Shown here piece after piece: positions 1-51,872 of a stretch of 64,000 nucleotides of DNA. The notes under the pieces were generated by a model. That model made no database searches. It saw nothing but the letters and a program-made list of their open reading frames with translations, and was not told where the DNA came from. A program made the position numbers and the translations under genes. Source of the DNA: Dictyostelium firmibasis (lineage: Eukaryota > Evosea > Eumycetozoa > Dictyosteliales > Dictyosteliaceae); NCBI GenBank assembly GCA_036169595.1, contig CM069767.1:786501-850500 (forward strand), read 5' to 3'. Within the stretch, counting starts at the first letter, position 1. Each line of letters starts with the position of its first letter.

Positions 1-152
1 TTTTTTTTTTTTTTTTTTTATATTAATGATTATTGTTTGACCTTAGTCTTTAACAATAATAAAGTTTTTTTTTTTTGTTTGCCAATGAAAATTTTTTTAT
101 TTTTTTTTTTTTTTATGAACTTCAGATTTAATGTTTTTGAGTAAAATAAACA

Positions 153-263
153 GATGATGGGTTTGATAGCTTTCAAGATTGGAATCGAACCAATTGATGG
201 ATTTCTCCACCACCACATACCGTTACGGGTCTCGAAAAAGAATTTATATGCTGTAAGATCATC
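153..263 (-). ncRNA. Candidate small non-coding RNA (class I-like, with tRNA-like 3' half)
   Basis: On the minus strand the proposed RNA begins GATGATCTTACAGCAT. The 5' GATGAT can pair with ATCATC at the 3' end (plus 153-158), closing a terminal stem. The CTTACAGCA just inside the stem resembles the conserved motif (about CCUUACAGCAA) that I recall for Dictyostelium class I RNAs. A CCCATAA box lies 59 bases upstream, where the DUSE promoter element of Dictyostelium small RNAs is expected. Inside is a tRNA-like part (plus 170-237): TTTCGAG pairs with CTTGAAA through 7 bp with one G-T, next to a perfect T-arm ATTGG/TTCGATT/CCAAT holding the B-box GGTTCGATTCC. The middle does not form a normal D arm or a 7-base anticodon loop, so a standard tRNA is unlikely. 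At 111 nt it is longer than the 42-65 nt class I RNAs I know of. Ends are inferred. Confidence 0.5.
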
Positions 264-321
264 TTGATTAAAAAAGGAAAAATCAAAAACAAAAATGGTT
301 TTAACAAATATTATAATTATA

Positions 322-328
322 TTATGGG
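322..328 (-). promoter_or_regulatory. DUSE-like element for the upstream small RNA
   Basis: The minus-strand sequence TCCCATAAT contains CCCATAA, the core I recall for the Dictyostelium upstream sequence element that precedes snRNA, class I RNA and other small RNA genes by about 60 nt. The spacing to the proposed RNA start at 263 is 59 nt. The element is short and the region A/T-rich, so the combination with the RNA motif matters more than the box alone. Confidence 0.5.
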
Positions 329-43708: not shown

Positions 43709-46700
43709 ATGAGGTTATTATTTATTTATTCAATATTATTTCTTTTAATATTTAATATTTTTTTTGTGAATTCAAACACATTGAAAGAGAATGAAATTGA
43801 TACACAAAGACAACAAAAATCATTACCATTCAATGAGAGTAATGTTGCACAATTAGATTTTACTTCAGTTTTTTCGCCAGGTCTTTATGCTATACCTTGG
43901 ACCGATCCAAATATGCCAACTGTTGCTTTGGAACAAGTCTCACAATCTGGTTATTTTATTGGAAATGTTATTCTCCAAGGAGGTCAATTTAATGATGAAA
44001 AATTAGGCAGTTTATTAAATGGAAAAGATCTTTATGTGTTAAGTCATTTTTCAGGTGCAGCTTGTTGCCAAAATGTAACCAGTGAAATTAAATTATTATT
44101 TGCCTTACCAATGGATAATATTTGTTTATTGATAGCATCTGTCGATGATAGTGATTTCGTTACTGTTAAGGCCAGAACAACACAAACCGATAATATTTAT
44201 GGAATCGGTAGTACAAATGCACCAATGGATATGAAAAAAGATTGGGCAAACTATGGACAAGGTACTTTATCAATGTCAACAGTGGAACAACCATCAAATA
44301 CCTCTGATTTGCCATCAATTGTTCTATCAAGAGACCAATCAAAAGCTTTCATTACAAGTATGGGAAATCCAACCACAATTAACTATCAAATCTTGGCTCC
44401 ATATATTAGTGTATCCTCAATTGATATTTCTTATTCAACTCTATCCGATTCTCAATACGTATTTTATGCACTTTTCCAATGTCCAAAACCAACTGGTGAT
44501 ATCGAACCAACTTGTGAGCCTGGATGCGTAACAGGTGGGGGTACTTCAGGTTCTTCATCAACTTCCGCCACCACAACAACTGGAGGGAGGCTCCTCGATT
44601 TCCTCCTCAGCTGGCAGTGAGTCAGAAAGTGAATCTCAAGGAACCACTGGTAGTGGATCTCAGGGAAGTAGTATTTCAACTACAACAGGTGGATCACAAG
44701 GTACTGGTATTTCATCCACAACCGGAAATTCTGGTAGTGAATCACAATCACAAGGAACTACTGGTAGTGGATCACAATCACAAGGAACTACTGGTAGTGA
44801 ATCACAATCACAAGGAACTACAGGCAGTGAATCACAATCACATGGAACAACTGGTAGTGAATCACAAGGAACTAGTGGATCCCAAGGAACCACTGGTAGT
44901 GAATCAGAATCACAGGGAACAACTGGCAGTGAATCACAATCACATGGAACAACTGGTGCAGGAAGTTCTGGATTCATTTCAGGTGTCACAACAACATCTC
45001 AATCATCCACAACTCAACAATCAACCACTCAATCGTCAACAACATCAACTGGATCCCAATCTGGTCATTCGAGCAGCCACTCTAGTTCCGGTCACTCCGG
45101 CCATTCAAGCAGCCACTCTGGTTCCGGTCACTCCGGATCAGGTCATTCCAGTGGTCACTCCAGTGGCCAATCTGGTCACTCCAGTAGCCATTCTGGTTCT
45201 GGTCATTCTGGTTCCGGTCATTCAAGTGGCAAAACAACCAAAGATTCATCTACTTTCACTTCTGGGTCACAAACTTCTACCACAGGAATTGATACTACAT
45301 CAACAACTCAAACATCAACAACATATAGTGCAGGAAGCACTGGTTTCATTTCAGGAGCATCAACAACCTCTGTTTCGACAACAACAGCAACAGGTAGCAT
45401 CCCAACAACAACATCCCAACCAACAACATCTCAACCATCTACAACTGACCAATCAACTGGTGCAGGAAGTTCTGGTTTCATTTCAGGTGTCACAACAACA
45501 TCCCAATCAACTACAACTCAACAATCAACCACTCAATCGTCAACAACATCAACTGGATCCCAATCTGGTCATTCGAGCAGCCACTCTGGTTCCGGTCATT
45601 CCAGTGACCACTCTGGTCATTCGAGCAGCCACTCTGGTTCTGGTCATTCTGGTTCTGGTCATTCTGGTTCCGGTCATTCTGGTTCCGGTCATTCTGGTTC
45701 TGGCCATTCTGGCAGCCTCTCTACTACCTCAACTGGATCACAAACATCTACCACAGGAATTGATACTACATCAACAACTCAAACATCAACAACATATAGT
45801 GCAGGAAGTACTGGTTTCATTTCAGGAGCATCAACAACCTCTGTTTCGACAACAACAGCGACAGGTAGCATCCCAACAACAACATCCCAACCAACAACAT
45901 ACCAACCATCTACAACTGACCAATCAACTGGTGCAGGAAGTTCAGGTTTCATTTCAGGTGTCACAACAACATCCCAATCATCCACAACTCAACAATCCAC
46001 AACTCAATCATCAACAACCTCAACTGGATCACAAACATCTACTACATCAACAACTCAAACATCAACAACATATAGTGCAGGAAGCACTGGTTTCATTTCA
46101 GGAGCATCAACAACCTCTGTTTCGACAACAACAGCAACAGGTAGCATCCCAACAACAACATCCCAACCAACAACATCTCAACCATCTACAACTGACCAAT
46201 CAACTGGTGCAGGAAGTTCTGGTTTCATTTCAGGTGTCACAACAACATCCCAACCAACTACAACTCAACAATCAACCACTCAATCGTCAACAACCTCAAC
46301 TGGATCCCAATCTGGTACTGGTAGTTCTGGATCAGGTCATTCCAGTGGTCACACAGGTCATTCGAGCAGCCACTCAGGTTCTGGACATTCTGGATCAGGC
46401 CATTCCAGCGGTCATTCAAGTGGTAAAACAACCCAAGGTTCCCCTACTACCTCCACTGGATCACAAACTTCTACCACAGGAATTTATACTACAGCAACGT
46501 CTTCACAATCTGTATCTGGCCAAAGTTCGATAGGCCTTATTTCTGGTGTAATTTCAGGAGGTAATAGTGTTGCAGGTGGATCTGGTTCAATTGGAAACAG
46601 TGGATCAATTACTGGATTAACTACAACAACTGGAGGAATAAGCGGAGGCAATCTTATTGCAGGTTTAACAACTGCAAGCTCGATTGCTCAAACAGGATCA

Positions 46701-49700
46701 GTCACTGGTTTAACAGCTGGTGGAATTGCAGGATCAGTCGGAGGTTTAATAACATCAAATTCATTAACTGGAGTAGGTTCAATCGGTAATATCGCCAATG
46801 CAATTTCAACTGGTGTCGTCGGTCAAATAACAACATCAAAACCAACCGTTTCATCATCGACAACATCACCACAAACAACATCAGGCCAAGGTACAATCGG
46901 ATTTATTTCTGGAGCCGGTAGTATCGCAGGAGGATCTGGATCAATTGCAAACACAGCAGTCGGAACTGGTTTAACAACAACAGGAATCTCAGGAGCCAAC
47001 TCCATTTCTAATTTAATTGGTGGCGGACTATCAGTCAGCGGTAGTGGATCAGTAGCTGGATTAACAACTCAATCAGGTAGTTTAACAGGAGGAAACACTG
47101 TAGCAGCAGTTACAACAGCCAATTCAATTGGATCTAAAACATCAATAACTGGAGTTTCATCTATTGGTGCAATTTCAGGATCAATTGACGGTTTAACAAC
47201 TGCAAACTCATTAACAGGAGCAGGCTCAATCGGTGGTGTAATCAGTCAAGCATCATCAATCGCTAATGTTATTTCTGGTGGTAATATCGCCGGTATCACT
47301 ACATCTCAAAGTTCAATTAGTAACTTAATCTCAGGATTAATCGCAGGAGGATCAGGATCAACAACATCTCCACAAACAGGATCAACTCAAAGCTCAACTG
47401 GTATTATATCTGGAGTAATTTCAGGATTAATAGCAGGAGGATCAGGATCAACAACATCCCCACAAACAGGATCAACTCAAAGCTCAATTGGTATTATTTC
47501 AGGTATTATATCTGGAGTAATTTCAGGAGGTAATAGTGTTGCAGGTGGATCTGGATCAATTGGAAACAGTGGATCAATTACTGGATTAACTACAACAACT
47601 GGAGGAATAAGCGGAGGTAATGTTATTGCAGGTTTAACAACTGCAAGCTCAATCGCCCAAACAGGATCAGTCACTGGTTTAACAGCTGGTGGAATTGCAG
47701 GATCAGTCGGAGGTTTAATAACATCAAATTCATTAACTGGAGTAGGTTCAATCGGTAATATCGCCAATGCAATTTCAACTGGTGTCGTCGGTCAAATAAC
47801 AACATCAAAACCAACCGTTTCATCATCGACAACATCACCACAAACAACATCAGGTCAAGGCACAATCGGATTTATTTCTGGAGCCGGTAGTATCGCAGGA
47901 GGATCTGGATCAATTGCAAACACAGCAGTCGGAACTGGTTTAACAACAACAGGAATCTCAGGAGCCAATTCAATTACAAATTTAATTGGTGGAGGATTAT
48001 CAGTCAGCGGTAGTGGATCAGTAGCTGGATTAACAACTCAATCAGGTAGTTTAACAGGAGGAAACACTGTAGCAGCAGTCACAACAGCCAATTCAATTGG
48101 ATCTAAAACATCAATAACTGGAGTTTCATCTATTGGTGCAATTTCAGGATCAATTGACGGTTTAACAACTGCAAACTCACTAACAGGAGCAGGCTCAATT
48201 GGTGGTGTAATCAGTCAAGCATCATCAATCGCTAATGTTATTTCTGGTGGTAATATCGCCGGTATCACTACATCTCAAAGCTCAATTAGCAACATAATCT
48301 CAGGATTAATCGCAGGAGGATCAGGATCAACAACATCCCCACAAACAGGATCAACTCAAAGCTCAACTGGTATTATTTCAGGTATTATATCTGGAGTAAT
48401 TTCAGGAGGTAATAGTGTTGCAGGTGGATCTGGATCAATTGGAAACAGTGGATCAATTACTGGATTAACTACAACAACTGGAGGAATAAGCGGAGGCAAT
48501 CTTATTGCAGGTTTAACAACTGCAAGCTCGATTGCTCAAACTGGATCAGTTACTGGTTTAACAGCTGGTGGAATTGCAGGATCAGTCGGAGGTTTAACAA
48601 CATCAAATTCATTAACTGGAGTAGGTTCAATCGGTAATATCGCCAATGCAATTTCAACTGGCGTCGTCGGTCAAATTACAACATCATCAACATCACCACA
48701 AACAACATCAGGCCAAGGTACAATCGGATTTATTTCTGGAGCCGGTAGTGTCGCAGGAGGATCTGGATCAATTGCAAACACAGCAGTCGGAACTGGTTTA
48801 ACAACAACAGGAATCTCAGGAGCCAACTCCATTTCTAATTTAATTGGTGGCGGACTATCAGTCAGCGGTAGTGGATCAGTAGCTGGATTAACAACTCAAT
48901 CAGGTAGTTTAACAGGAGGAAACACCGTAGCAGCAGTTACAACAGCCAATTCAATTGGATCTAAAACATCAATAACTGGAGTTTCATCTATTGGTGCAAT
49001 TTCAGGATCAATTGACGGTTTAACAACTGCAAACTCATTAACAGGAGCAGGCTCAATCGGTGGTGTAATCAGTCAAGCATCATCAATCGCTAATGTTATT
49101 TCTGGTGGTAATATCGCCGGTATCACTACATCTCAAAGCTCAATTAGCAACATAATCTCAGGATTAATCGCAGGAGGATCAGGATCAACAACATCTCCAC
49201 AAACAGGATCAACTCAAAGCTCAACTGGTATTATATCTGGAGTAATTTCAGGATTAATAGCAGGAGGATCAGGATCAACAACATCCCCACAAACAGGATC
49301 AACTCAAAGCTCAATTGGTATTATATCTGGAGTAATTTCAGGAGGTAATAGTGTTGCAGGTGGATCTGGATCAATTGGAAACAGTGGATCAATTACTGGA
49401 TTAACTACAACAACTGGAGGAATAAGCGGAGGCAATCTTATTGCAGGTTTAACAACTGCAAGCTCGATTGCTCAAACAGGATCAGTCACTGGTTTAACAG
49501 CTGGTGGAATTGCAGGATCAGTCGGAGGTTTAATAACATCAAATTCATTAACTGGAGTAGGTTCAATCGGTAATATCGCCAATGCAATTTCAACTGGTGT
49601 CGTCGGTCAAATTACAACATCATCAACATCACCACAAACAACATCAGGCCAAGGTACAATCGGGTTTATTTCTGGAGCCGGTAGTGTCGCAGGAGGATCT

Positions 49701-51872
49701 GGATCAATTGCAAACACAGCAGTCGGAACTGGTTTAACAACAACAGGAATCTCAGGAGCCAATTCAATTACAAATTTAATTGGTGGAGGACTATCAGTCA
49801 GCGGTAGTGGATCAGTAGCTGGATTAACAACTCAATCAGGTAGTTTAACAGGAGGAAACACTGTAGCAGCAGTTACAACAGCCAATTCAATTGGATCTAA
49901 AACATCAATAACTGGAGTTTCATCTATTGGTGCAATTTCAGGATCAATTGACGGTTTAACAACTGCAAACTCACTAACAGGAGCAGGCTCAATCGGTGGT
50001 GTAATCAGTCAAGCATCATCAATCGCTAATGTTATTTCTGGTGGTAATATCGCCGGTATCACTACATCTCAAAGCTCAACTGGTATTATATCTGGTGTAA
50101 TTTCAGGATTAATAGCAGGAGGATCAGGATCAACAACATCTCCTCAAACAGGGTCAACTCAAAGCTCAATTGGTATTATATCTGGAGTAATTTCAGGAGG
50201 TAATAGTGTTGCAGGTGGATCTGGATCAATTGGAAACAGTGGATCAATTACTGGATTAACTACAACAACTGGAGGAATAAGCGGAGGCAATCTTATTGCA
50301 GGTTTAACAACTGCAAGCTCGATTGCTCAAACTGGATCAGTCACTGGTTTAACAGCTGGTGGAATTGCAGGATCAGTCGGAGGTTTAACAACATCAAATT
50401 CATTAACTGGAGTAGGTTCAATCGGTAATATCGCCAATGCAATTTCAACTGGTGTCGTCGGTCAAATAACAACATCAAAACCAACCGTTTCATCATCGAC
50501 AACATCACCACAAACAACATCAGGTCAAGGTACAATCGGATTTATTTCTGGAGCCGGTAGTGTCGCAGGAGGATCTGGATCAATTGCAAACACAGCAGTC
50601 GGAACTGGTTTAACAACAACAGGAATCTCAGGAGCCAACTCCATTTCTAATTTAATTGGTGGCGGACTATCAGTCAGCGGTAGTGGATCAGTAGCTGGAT
50701 TAACAACTCAATCAGGTAGTTTAACAGGAGGAAACACTGTAGCAGCAGTCACAACAGCCAATTCAATTGGATCTAAAACATCAATAACTGGAGTTTCATC
50801 TATTGGTGCAATTTCAGGATCAATTGACGGTTTAACAACTGCAAACTCATTAACAGGAGCAGGCTCAATTGGTGGTGTAATCAGTCAAGCATCATCAATC
50901 GCTAATGTTATTTCTGGTGGTAATATCGCCGGTATCACTACATCTCAAAGCTCAATTAGTAACATAGTTTCAGGTTTGATCGCAGGAGGGTCAGGAACAA
51001 TCGCAAACACAGCAGTCGGAACTGGTTTAACGTCAATAGGAATTTCAGGAGCCAATTCAATTACAAATTTAATTGGTGGAGGATTATCAGTCAGCGGTAG
51101 TGGATCAGTAGCTGGATTAACAACTCAATCAGCTAGTCTAACCGGAGCAAACACCATAGCAGCAGTCACAACAGCCAATTCAATTGGAACTAAAACATCA
51201 ATAACTGGAGTTTCATCTATTGGTGCAATTTCGGGATCAATTGACGGTTTAACAACTTCAAATTCACTATCTGGAGCTGGTTCAATTACTGGATTAACTA
51301 CAACAACTGGAGGAATAAGTGGAGGCAATGCTATTGCAGGTTTAACAACTTCAAATTCAATCGCCCAAACAGGATCAGTCACTGGTTTAACAGCTGGTGG
51401 AATCGCAGGATCAGTCGGAGGTTTAACAACATCTAACTCATTAACTGGAGTAGGTTCAATCGGTAATATCGCCAACGCAATTTCATCTGGTGTCGTCGGT
51501 CAAATTACAACATCAAAACCAACAACCACTGCGAGCCAATCAACAGGTTTTATCACAGGATCTAATAGTATTGGTGCAGGAACTGGCTCGGGATCGTCTT
51601 ATTTGGGTGGGTTGATTAGTTCATCTGGTTCAACGGGTTTAATTAGTGGCGTAACCTCATCTACACCTCCAACTCAAAAACCATTATTTGGCTCTATTGG
51701 TTTCATCACTGGTAGTTTCAAAATTAGTGAAGATAAACCATTCACATATGAACAAGAAAAAACAGATAAAATGATAGCTGTTAAAGAAGTATCTCGAAAC
51801 CAAAGCCCAGCATTTAGTGAAGAGGATTACCTTGGACCATTAGACCAAAATTATGTTGAAACAAGAAATTAA
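43709..51872 (+). CDS. Secreted Gly/Ser/Thr-rich giant repeat protein, apparent frame break near start
   Basis: I do not recognise the gene. The first frame opens with a signal peptide (MRLLFIYSILFLLIFNIFFV) and a roughly 270-residue globular part with cysteines (AACCQN, CPKPTGDIEPTCEPGC). It then enters Gly/Ser/Thr sequence and stops at 44618-44620. The low-complexity sequence continues in the +1 frame to 51872, about 2430 aa more. Composition changes frame smoothly at GGAGGGAGG (44582-44590), which suggests one extra base there, real or an assembly error, rather than an intron. The next part has TGAGSSGFISGV and SGHSGSGHS units; then about five long repeats; then a non-repetitive acidic tail (EEDYLGPLDQNYVETRN). 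No membrane span or GPI signal is seen. A cell-surface, coat or matrix role is only a guess. Confidence 0.75.
44956..46500 (+). repeat. Short tandem repeats: Thr/Ser units and His-Gly-Ser units
   Basis: Within the giant gene. Units opening GAGSSGFISGVTTTSQ occur four times (near 44958, 45460, 45930, 46207), three of them separated by YSAGSTGFISGASTTS units. Between them are SGHS/GSGHS arrays coded by GGTCATTCTGGTTCC-type 15-mers, densest at 45070-45230 and 45560-45720. Confidence 0.85.
46561..51540 (+). repeat. Five long near-identical tandem repeats plus a partial sixth
   Basis: The word GTAATAGTGTTGCAGGTGGA recurs at 46561, 47530, 48409, 49345 and 50200, giving units of about 969, 879, 936, 855 and a final shorter one. 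A sixth, rearranged partial copy runs from about 50990 to 51540. Length differences come from whole sub-units, such as one or two copies of the GLIAGGSGSTTSPQTGSTQ block and presence or absence of KPTVSS. Copies are nearly identical at the DNA level, including silent sites. Confidence 0.9.

What the first reader, a model, noticed from the sequence alone, without database searches (positions are those of the whole stretch)
153..328. Small RNA locus combining class I-like motif, DUSE-like box and tRNA-like 3' half
On the minus strand, CCCATAA is followed 59 bases later by GATGATCTTACAGCAT, whose first six bases pair with ATCATC 111 bases on. That is the architecture of Dictyostelium class I RNAs. 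The same transcript contains a 7-bp acceptor-like helix joined directly to a perfect T-arm with a B-box. Class I RNAs as I know them are shorter and carry no tRNA-like domain, so this could be an unusual long member, a chimera, or two overlapping RNA genes. A T5 run inside (plus 235-239) would stop Pol III starting at 263, which hints at Pol II, or at a separate internal promoter for the tRNA-like part.
Basis: partly seen in the sequence, partly recalled or inferred. Interest (0 to 1): 0.75.

Follow-up and report, generated by a model that had tools for sequence, protein, structure and literature searches.

The report
Long Class I RNA with tRNA-like core
A social amoeba gene for a small developmental RNA of a known amoeba-only class is about twice the usual length, because its usually floppy loop is replaced by a compact fold that resembles part of a transfer RNA.

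Summary
On the minus strand of a genome whose size and contig number fit Dictyostelium firmibasis lies a predicted 114-nt RNA (263→150) with the Class I RNA signature: DUSE CCCATAA 58 nt upstream, AAG start, 6-bp closing stem, CTTACAGCA motif, CTGT end. A covariance model built from nine other loci of this genome finds it end to end (27.8 bits, E 1.9e-4 in the window). DUSE plus CTTACAGCA occurs four times in 31 Mb; the other three match Rfam's Class I model. It departs from the siblings in length (114 versus 52-64 nt), in the last motif base (A→T) and in lacking the T run that all 8 DUSE-bearing siblings have. The T5 argument does not discriminate: three siblings have T5-T6 at nearly the same place. 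The core folds as a four-way junction with acceptor-like helix, T-arm/B-box and two small hairpins, like mascRNA. T-arm plus acceptor arises in 18 of 300,000 shuffles, but tRNA models see no tRNA and the choice of feature was post hoc. So: a long Class I variant; whether the tRNA-like core is used is unknown. Expression and conservation could not be tested. By-product: the tRNA-Sec gene has a DUSE at the same 58-nt spacing.

The parts
322..328 (-). DUSE promoter element CCCATAA
   Evidence: 58 nt to G263, identical to siblings L024, L025, L027 and to the tRNA-Sec gene; element as described in PMC7919456 and PMC3188802
150..263 (-). Predicted 114-nt long Class I RNA (5' G at 263, 3' CTGT ending at 150)
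   Evidence: Model R1, built from 9 other loci, matches 265-147 end to end, 27.8 bits, E 1.9e-4; with filters off it picks 265-187, 15.9 bits; ends by analogy with published Class I ends
258..263 (-). 5' strand of closing stem, GATGAT
   Evidence: Pairs with 158-153, pair probability 0.87-0.92 at 22 C
153..158 (-). 3' strand of closing stem, ATCATC
   Evidence: two pairs changed on both sides relative to the siblings' GTTGAC/GTCAAC (reading)
248..258 (-). 11-nt Class I motif, TCTTACAGCAT (siblings CCTTACAGCAA)
   Evidence: first and last base differ from the siblings
150..153 (-). Conserved 3' end CTGT
   Evidence: Same CTGT in 9 of 9 siblings; the bases after it vary among siblings
235..239 (-). 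T5 run in the RNA strand (nt 25-29)
   Evidence: siblings L022, L024, L027 have T5-T6 from nt 27
171..237 (-). tRNA-like (mascRNA-like) four-way-junction domain, nt 27-93
   Evidence: MFE at 22 C -28.1 kcal/mol, z -2.18; 26 of 1000 shuffles as stable; four-way junction in 36 of 3000 shuffles
231..237 (-). 5' strand of acceptor-like helix TTTCGAG
171..177 (-). 3' strand of acceptor-like helix CTTGAAA, directly after the T-arm
213..229 (-). Small D-like hairpin with loop ACGG (two G in the loop)
   Evidence: Pair probability about 0.62-0.75 at 22 C; an alternative CCG-UAA-CGG hairpin, which pairs those G, has about 0.13
196..211 (-). Middle (anticodon-arm-like or variable-arm-like) hairpin GGTGGA-GAAA-TCCATC
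   Evidence: Pair probability 0.91-1.0 at 22 C
178..194 (-). T-arm with consensus T-loop; B-box GGTTCGATTCC at 191-181
   Evidence: weak local match of 213-179 to tRNA-Sec model positions 47-82, 15 bits, E 7.2

Best explanation
A genuine Class I RNA gene of a dictyostelid, in a long variant. DUSE at -58 sets the start at G263. The transcript is closed by the 6-bp end-to-end stem, which presents the largely single-stranded CUUACAGCA motif for the Class I partner (in D. discoideum the RRM protein Rnp1A binds the one tested Class I RNA). In place of the usual short variable loop it carries a 67-nt four-way junction with a tRNA-like acceptor/T-arm. That module probably acts as a structured payload, protecting the RNA and offering a tRNA-type elbow to tRNA-binding or tRNA-modifying proteins. 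Shown: sequence signature, promoter spacing, model match, predicted fold. Inferred: transcription, exact ends, protein binding and any use of the tRNA-like module.
For: DUSE+motif at the right spacing: 4 places in the genome, control 0; the other three are RF01414 matches, one over the gathering score of 41.5 bits (42.6) and two just under it (41.4, 39.8). R1, trained on 9 other loci and without the DUSE, matches 265-147 in full, with 76 bases where the model has 23 positions, 27.8 bits, E 1.9e-4; the only other match in the window up to E 10 has 9.6 bits. DUSE distance is 58 nt, as in L024, L025, L027. AAG start and CTGT end are intact, and two closing-stem pairs differ from the siblings on both sides yet pair. 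The gene is intergenic, between a minus-strand PRT6_C-domain gene plus a 135-aa ORF and a plus-strand EF-2-like gene; published Class I genes are intergenic too. The core is more stable than shuffles (z -2.18; 26 of 1000) and forms a four-way junction that 36 of 3000 shuffles form.
Against: RF01414 itself does not report it, at gathering in the window or at E<=10 in 900 bases, nor among its 9 genome matches (where 60 of 30,104 first-look candidates were scored). With filters off R1 prefers another end (265-187, 15.9 bits, without CTGT). Position 11 of the motif is T instead of the near-invariant A. 114 nt is outside the lengths I saw published (42-65, and 82 and 85 nt). No run of 5 or more T follows within 400 nt, whereas 8 of 8 DUSE-bearing siblings have one starting within 13 nt. 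The whole RNA is not unusually stable (z -1.05 at 37 C; -0.51 at 22 C). No expression data and no relative's sequence were available.
Confidence: 0.68

Rival explanations
1. A Class I gene whose variable region only happens to look tRNA-like. The long insert is neutral and the T-arm/acceptor has no partner in the cell. (This shares the Class I identity with the best explanation and disputes only the use of the core.)
For: The Class I variable region is free to vary in sequence and structure (PMC7919456). A T-arm with stacked 7-bp helix turns up at one other place in the window's 128 kb. ARAGORN and Rfam tRNA models give nothing significant. The whole RNA is no more stable than shuffles. The resemblance was chosen after seeing the sequence.
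Against: 18 of 300,000 shuffles of the interior give T-arm plus acceptor; 36 of 3000 shuffles of the domain give the junction; T-arm and middle-hairpin pairs are predicted at 0.86 or more at 22 C.
Confidence: 0.45
2. A decaying Class I gene: promoter and ends still readable, but terminator lost and an unrelated insert accumulated; not expressed or not functional.
For: No T run downstream, motif A11 changed, interior unlike every sibling. A probably dead copy exists in this genome: L028 has no DUSE, no T run and a predicted fold without the 6-bp closing stem.
Against: DUSE, spacing, AAG, all 6 stem pairs and CTGT are intact together, which is not so in L028; two stem pairs differ from siblings on both sides and still pair.
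Confidence: 0.17
3. Two overlapping RNA genes, or a precursor: the tRNA-like part is excised by RNase P and RNase Z (as mascRNA is from MALAT1), or transcribed on its own from an internal A/B-box promoter.
For: Acceptor-like helix, T-arm with B-box, small D-like hairpin with GG in its loop, longer middle stem with compact loop and few linker bases are the features described for mascRNA/menRNA (PMC11693755, passages). A permissive A-box match (nt 28-38) lies 35 bases before the B-box core, inside the 30-60 bp quoted in PMC5391098 (passage).
Against: Permissive A-box matches are expected about twice per 114 nt in this window and the stringent form is absent; no T run of 5 or more after it in 400 nt; acceptor-helix probability only 0.64-0.68 at 22 C; excision would destroy the Class I RNA.
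Confidence: 0.08
4. Not Class I in function but a vault-RNA- or Y-RNA-like RNA: end-to-end stem plus internal B-box, bound by a TROVE protein.
For: The genome has one reported TROVE-domain match (266.6 bits; listed with an open frame of 2466 aa and 3 stops inside), and human vault RNA genes carry A and B boxes (PMC7904556, passage). I saw no identified Dictyostelium vault RNA in the passages read. That Y RNAs have an end-to-end stem is recalled.
Against: The motif, ends and DUSE are Class I; no Rfam vault or Y model rings.
Confidence: 0.03

Closest known systems
Class I RNAs of Dictyostelia (Rfam RF01414 Dicty_Class_I_RNA; Kjellin et al. 2021, PMC7919456)
   Same: DUSE about 60 nt upstream, AAG start, 6-bp end-to-end stem, CTTACAGCA motif next to the 5' stem, CTGT end, intergenic
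   Different: 114 nt instead of 42-65 (82, 85) nt; motif ends in T instead of A; structured tRNA-like interior instead of a mostly open loop; no T run downstream; not reported by RF01414
mascRNA / menRNA tRNA-like domains of MALAT1 and MEN-beta (PMC11693755, passages)
   Same: By predicted fold: acceptor-like helix stacked on a T stem-loop, reduced D hairpin with two loop G, longer middle stem with compact loop, almost no junction linkers
   Different: Nested inside a Class I RNA rather than cut from a long RNA; no evidence of processing; no sequence relation shown
Selenocysteine tRNA gene of the same genome (C2:2684555-2684641)
   Same: DUSE exactly 58 nt upstream plus an internal B-box core GTTCGATTC
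   Different: A full tRNA-Sec with anticodon arm (RF01852, 61.3 bits) and a T7 run 7 nt after its end; the window RNA has neither
Class II RNAs of D. discoideum (PMC3188802, passages)
   Same: Share DUSE, bulge motif and end-to-end stem with Class I
   Different: Stem begins GCTCG there, GATGAT here; arms 40-70 bp apart there, about 100 here

Membership tests
Class I RNA (RF01414) | DUSE about 60 nt upstream of the start | tested here: met
   CCCATAA, 58 nt; same as the 3 DUSE-bearing siblings whose DUSE is nearest
Class I RNA (RF01414) | AAG at the 5' end | tested here: met
   265-263
Class I RNA (RF01414) | About 6-bp stem joining 5' and 3' ends, structure kept while sequence varies | tested here: met
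   6 of 6 pairs, probability 0.87-0.92 at 22 C; among the nine siblings 98.1% of cells paired and 6 cells changed on both sides, each reached by 0 of 500 shuffles, while the count of such pairs (3) is reached by 37 of 500
Class I RNA (RF01414) | 11-nt motif with near-invariant T3, C6, C9, A10, A11 | tested here: inconclusive
   T3, C6, C9, A10 met; A11 is T. Four of five.
Class I RNA (RF01414) | CTGT 3' end, C pairing with the first G | tested here: met
   153-150
Class I RNA (RF01414) | Length around 60 nt (42-65 in D. discoideum; 82-85 reported in others) | tested here: not met
   114 nt; siblings 52-64. A typical rather than a strict criterion, but it is why I call this a variant.
Class I RNA (RF01414) | Score of a Class I covariance model | tested here: inconclusive
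   R1 from 9 siblings 27.8 bits, E 1.9e-4; filters off 15.9 bits with another end; RF01414 silent
Class I RNA (RF01414) | T run downstream (many members) | tested here: not met
   None of 5 or more in 400 nt; 8 of 8 DUSE-bearing siblings have one starting within 13 nt
Class I RNA (RF01414) | Expressed as a discrete, developmentally regulated RNA; partner Rnp1A | not testable with these tools
   No reads available
tRNA | Match to tRNA models | tested here: not met
   ARAGORN 0 genes; RF00005 silent and RF01852 only a 15-bit partial match; at half threshold ARAGORN rings 382 times in the window, so its ring here means nothing
mascRNA-like tRNA mimic | Acceptor helix + T stem-loop + reduced D loop with two G + long middle stem, few linkers | tested here: met
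   By predicted fold only; acceptor helix at 0.64-0.68
mascRNA-like tRNA mimic | RNase P / RNase Z processing | not testable with these tools
   No reads or assay

The most novel reading that the evidence does not exclude
Class I RNAs can act as carriers: here the constant frame (closing stem plus CUUACAGCA) carries a true tRNA mimic that recruits tRNA-handling factors (TFIIIC on the gene; pseudouridine synthase, RNase P/Z or another tRNA-binding protein on the RNA), linking the amoeba's developmental Class I RNP to tRNA biology. As far as I know (recalled; some searches were my only searches on Class I RNAs) it would be the first such chimera in this class.
Probability: 0.2. Interest if true: 0.72.

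Novelty: new variant of a known kind. Interest (0 to 1): 0.42.

Why it matters
Class I RNAs are abundant, known only from Dictyostelia and tied to multicellular development (PMC7919456), but what their variable loop does is not settled. A member whose loop is a defined, tRNA-like module turns that into a testable question: swap or delete the module and see what changes. It also suggests that models tuned to about 60 nt can miss members, so other long Class I RNAs may be uncounted. The DUSE shared with the tRNA-Sec gene at the same 58-nt spacing adds to the case that DUSE can drive Pol III genes.

Tried and rejected
Canonical tRNA: rejected. ARAGORN at half threshold gives a ring here, but also 382 rings in the window and 11,348 in 20,000 shuffles, so I do not count it. 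From 80% downwards it also rings on the bare 114 nt; the hit printed there, at 50%, wraps round the ends, and I do not count that either.

Derivation from a known tRNA: the mitochondrial tRNA-Asn (C12:1031-1103) shares the T-arm with two mismatches, but its acceptor and D arms do not match by eye. A 196-nt DNA search finds only the locus itself. Not supported. Not every tRNA of the genome was compared.

Other long members in the genome: CTTACAGCA-N80-110-CTGTTT gives this locus and one place on C5 without DUSE; N49-79 gives none. The N18-48 search gives 4 Class I loci and one place without DUSE. Longer or motif-changed members would be missed.

DUSE followed at tRNA-like distance by a B-box core: 6 places, control 2 in all. 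Two are this locus and tRNA-Sec. The other four were not resolved; the fetched stretch of one (L035) also holds an ordinary tRNA.

A first DUSE/B-box pattern with too short a gap found nothing, not even this locus: my error. One search looked for a T run only as far as the window's edge (149 nt); one search repeats it over 400 nt with the same result.

Public collections: an exact 22-base piece in prokaryote genomes and a gapped pattern in viral contigs gave 0.

Telomerase RNA was considered: the complements of the core of the two repeats published for D. firmibasis share no word of 4 bases with the RNA. Vault and Y RNA: see rivals.

Full report
Where it is. The window lies at C3:786501-850500 of a genome of 31,455,843 bases in 12 contigs. 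The published D. firmibasis TNS-C-14 assembly has 31.5 Mbp in 12 contigs (PMC11193728, passages), so I take the host to be that species; this is an inference from size and contig number. The RNA lies in an intergenic stretch: to its right an EF-2-like gene on the plus strand (Pfam EF-Tu/EF-G domains), to its left a 135-aa ORF without Pfam match and a gene with a PRT6_C domain (UBR-type ligase by inference), both on the minus strand.

Observation. In addition the locus has the AA before the first G and the CTGT end, which Kjellin et al. 2021 give as conserved ends of Class I RNAs (PMC7919456). The RNA would be 114 nt, 263 to 150.

Is the Class I signature chance? DUSE CCCATAA, 45-75 bases, CTTACAGCA occurs four times in the genome, with 0 for the reversed control. 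The other three coincide with matches of RF01414, Dicty_Class_I_RNA. That search lists 9 matches, 5 of them over the gathering score of 41.5 bits and 4 below it (41.4 to 37.9, E up to 1.6e-4); 60 of 30,104 first-look candidates were scored, so 9 is a lower bound. In the window's 128 kb of both strands CTTACAGC and ATCATCTGT each occur once, both in this RNA, and the DUSE stands 58 nt upstream, exactly as at L024, L025 and L027. I aligned the nine matches. Their closing stem has 98.1% paired cells and 6 cells changed on both sides, each reached by 0 of 500 shuffles; the number of pairs changed on both sides (3) is reached by 37 of 500 and the number of further pair types by 204 of 500. A covariance model built from them, which had not seen this locus or any DUSE, finds the locus from 265 to 147 over its whole length with 27.8 bits, E 1.9e-4, with 76 bases where the model has 23 positions; the only other match in the window up to E 10 has 9.6 bits. 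Kjellin et al. used 25 bits of their own model, or 15 with a good DUSE, as thresholds; scores of different models are not strictly comparable. Against this, with filters off the same model chooses another 3' end (265-187, 15.9 bits), and Rfam's own model does not report the locus. I think a limit on insert length is the reason, but did not show it.

How it differs from its siblings. The nine matches are 52-64 nt and none has a B-box core (0 of 9). One of them, L028, has no DUSE, no T run and a predicted fold without the 6-bp closing stem, and looks dead. The eight with DUSE all have a run of five or more T starting within 13 nt of the end; the window RNA has none in 400 nt. Its motif ends in T where the published motif has a near-invariant A. 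Its stem GATGAT/ATCATC differs from GTTGAC/GTCAAC at two pairs, both changed on both sides (reading).

The tRNA-like core. Nt 27-93 fold at 22 C into an acceptor-like 7-bp helix, a D-like hairpin with loop ACGG, a 6-bp middle hairpin with loop GAAA and a 5-bp T-arm with consensus loop. Pair probabilities at 22 C are 0.86-0.97 (T stem), 0.91-1.0 (middle), 0.64-0.68 (acceptor) and 0.62-0.75 for the D-like hairpin; at 37 C the outermost T-stem pair drops to 0.67. The domain is more stable than shuffles (z -2.18; 26 of 1000 as stable), and 36 of 3000 shuffles have such a junction. The whole RNA is not unusually stable (30 of 200 shuffles as stable at 37 C; 282 of 1000 at 22 C). A B-box core arises in 6107 of 300,000 shuffles of the interior, a full T-arm in 1167, a T-arm with stacked 7-bp helix in 18. 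These figures are conditional on having chosen 'tRNA-like' after seeing the sequence. In the window's 128 kb one other such T-arm plus acceptor occurs, so the feature alone is not rare; its place inside a Class I RNA is what is unusual. Detectors of real tRNAs see nothing significant; a 15-bit partial match of the middle hairpin and T-arm to tRNA-Sec has E 7.2. The shape agrees with the description of mascRNA and menRNA: acceptor and T stem-loops kept, smaller D hairpin with two guanines that dock on the T loop, longer middle stem with compact loop, linkers missing (PMC11693755, passages). That is an analogy of predicted folds, not evidence of kinship.

How it most likely works. The DUSE starts transcription at G263 (inferred from spacing; [quoted passage not shown] The ends pair, and most of the motif stays open (nt 7-11 and 15 unpaired at 0.69-0.98, but nt 12-14 only at 0.28-0.36). 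The frame would enter the usual Class I particle, for which Rnp1A is the known direct partner of DdR-21 (PMC7919456). The tRNA-like core would be a structured cargo. Which polymerase makes it is open: PMC7919456 thinks of Pol III because of T runs, which this locus lacks. The 3' end may come from processing or from the T4 just downstream.

By-product. The only tRNA-Sec match reported in the genome (RF01852, 61.3 bits) also has CCCATAA exactly 58 nt upstream and a T7 run 7 nt after its end. Both genes therefore combine DUSE with an internal GTTCGATTC. A 2026 paper calls the D. discoideum tRNA-Sec gene constitutively repressed from nucleosome data (PMC13063481, passage). If the D. discoideum gene uses a DUSE too, which I could not check, that reading may need a second look.

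Novelty. Searches of the paper library for Class I RNAs listed no paper whose title or abstract start mentions a tRNA-like Class I RNA (1, 5, and 12 of 13 papers listed). I could not read the supplements with the DfiR list, and ten Class I RNAs are annotated in this genome (PMC11193728) against eight DUSE-bearing RF01414 matches here, so this locus may be among them. I rate it a new variant of a known kind.

Noticed in passing
L014 1501-1587 minus (G000:C2:2684555-2684641): The only tRNA-Sec match reported in the genome has a DUSE (CCCATAA) exactly 58 nt upstream, the spacing of Class I genes, and a T7 run 7 nt after its end: a snRNA-type promoter for tRNA-Sec in a dictyostelid.
   Followed up: partly
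L028 (G000:C3:294924-294983 minus): RF01414 match of 37.9 bits without DUSE or T run and with a predicted fold lacking the 6-bp closing stem; its variable region resembles L025. Probably a dead copy.
   Followed up: partly
L024 and L027 (G000:C5:1615026-1615087 and C4:4134821-4134881): Two near-identical Class I genes with stem GTCTGC/GCAGAC on different contigs, similar between DUSE and start too: looks like a recent dispersed duplication.
   Followed up: no
   Followed up: no
window 44535-51872: GC rises to about 0.38-0.43 over a 2445-aa open frame with tandem repeats (units of 30, 90, 132 bases and longer) that read as Thr/Ser/Gln-rich: a large repetitive, perhaps surface-type protein.
   Followed up: no
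G000:C1:1093831-1094880 (L032): One reported TROVE-domain match (266.6 bits), listed with an open frame of 2466 aa and 3 stops inside: a candidate TEP1- or Ro-like RNA-binding protein.
   Followed up: no
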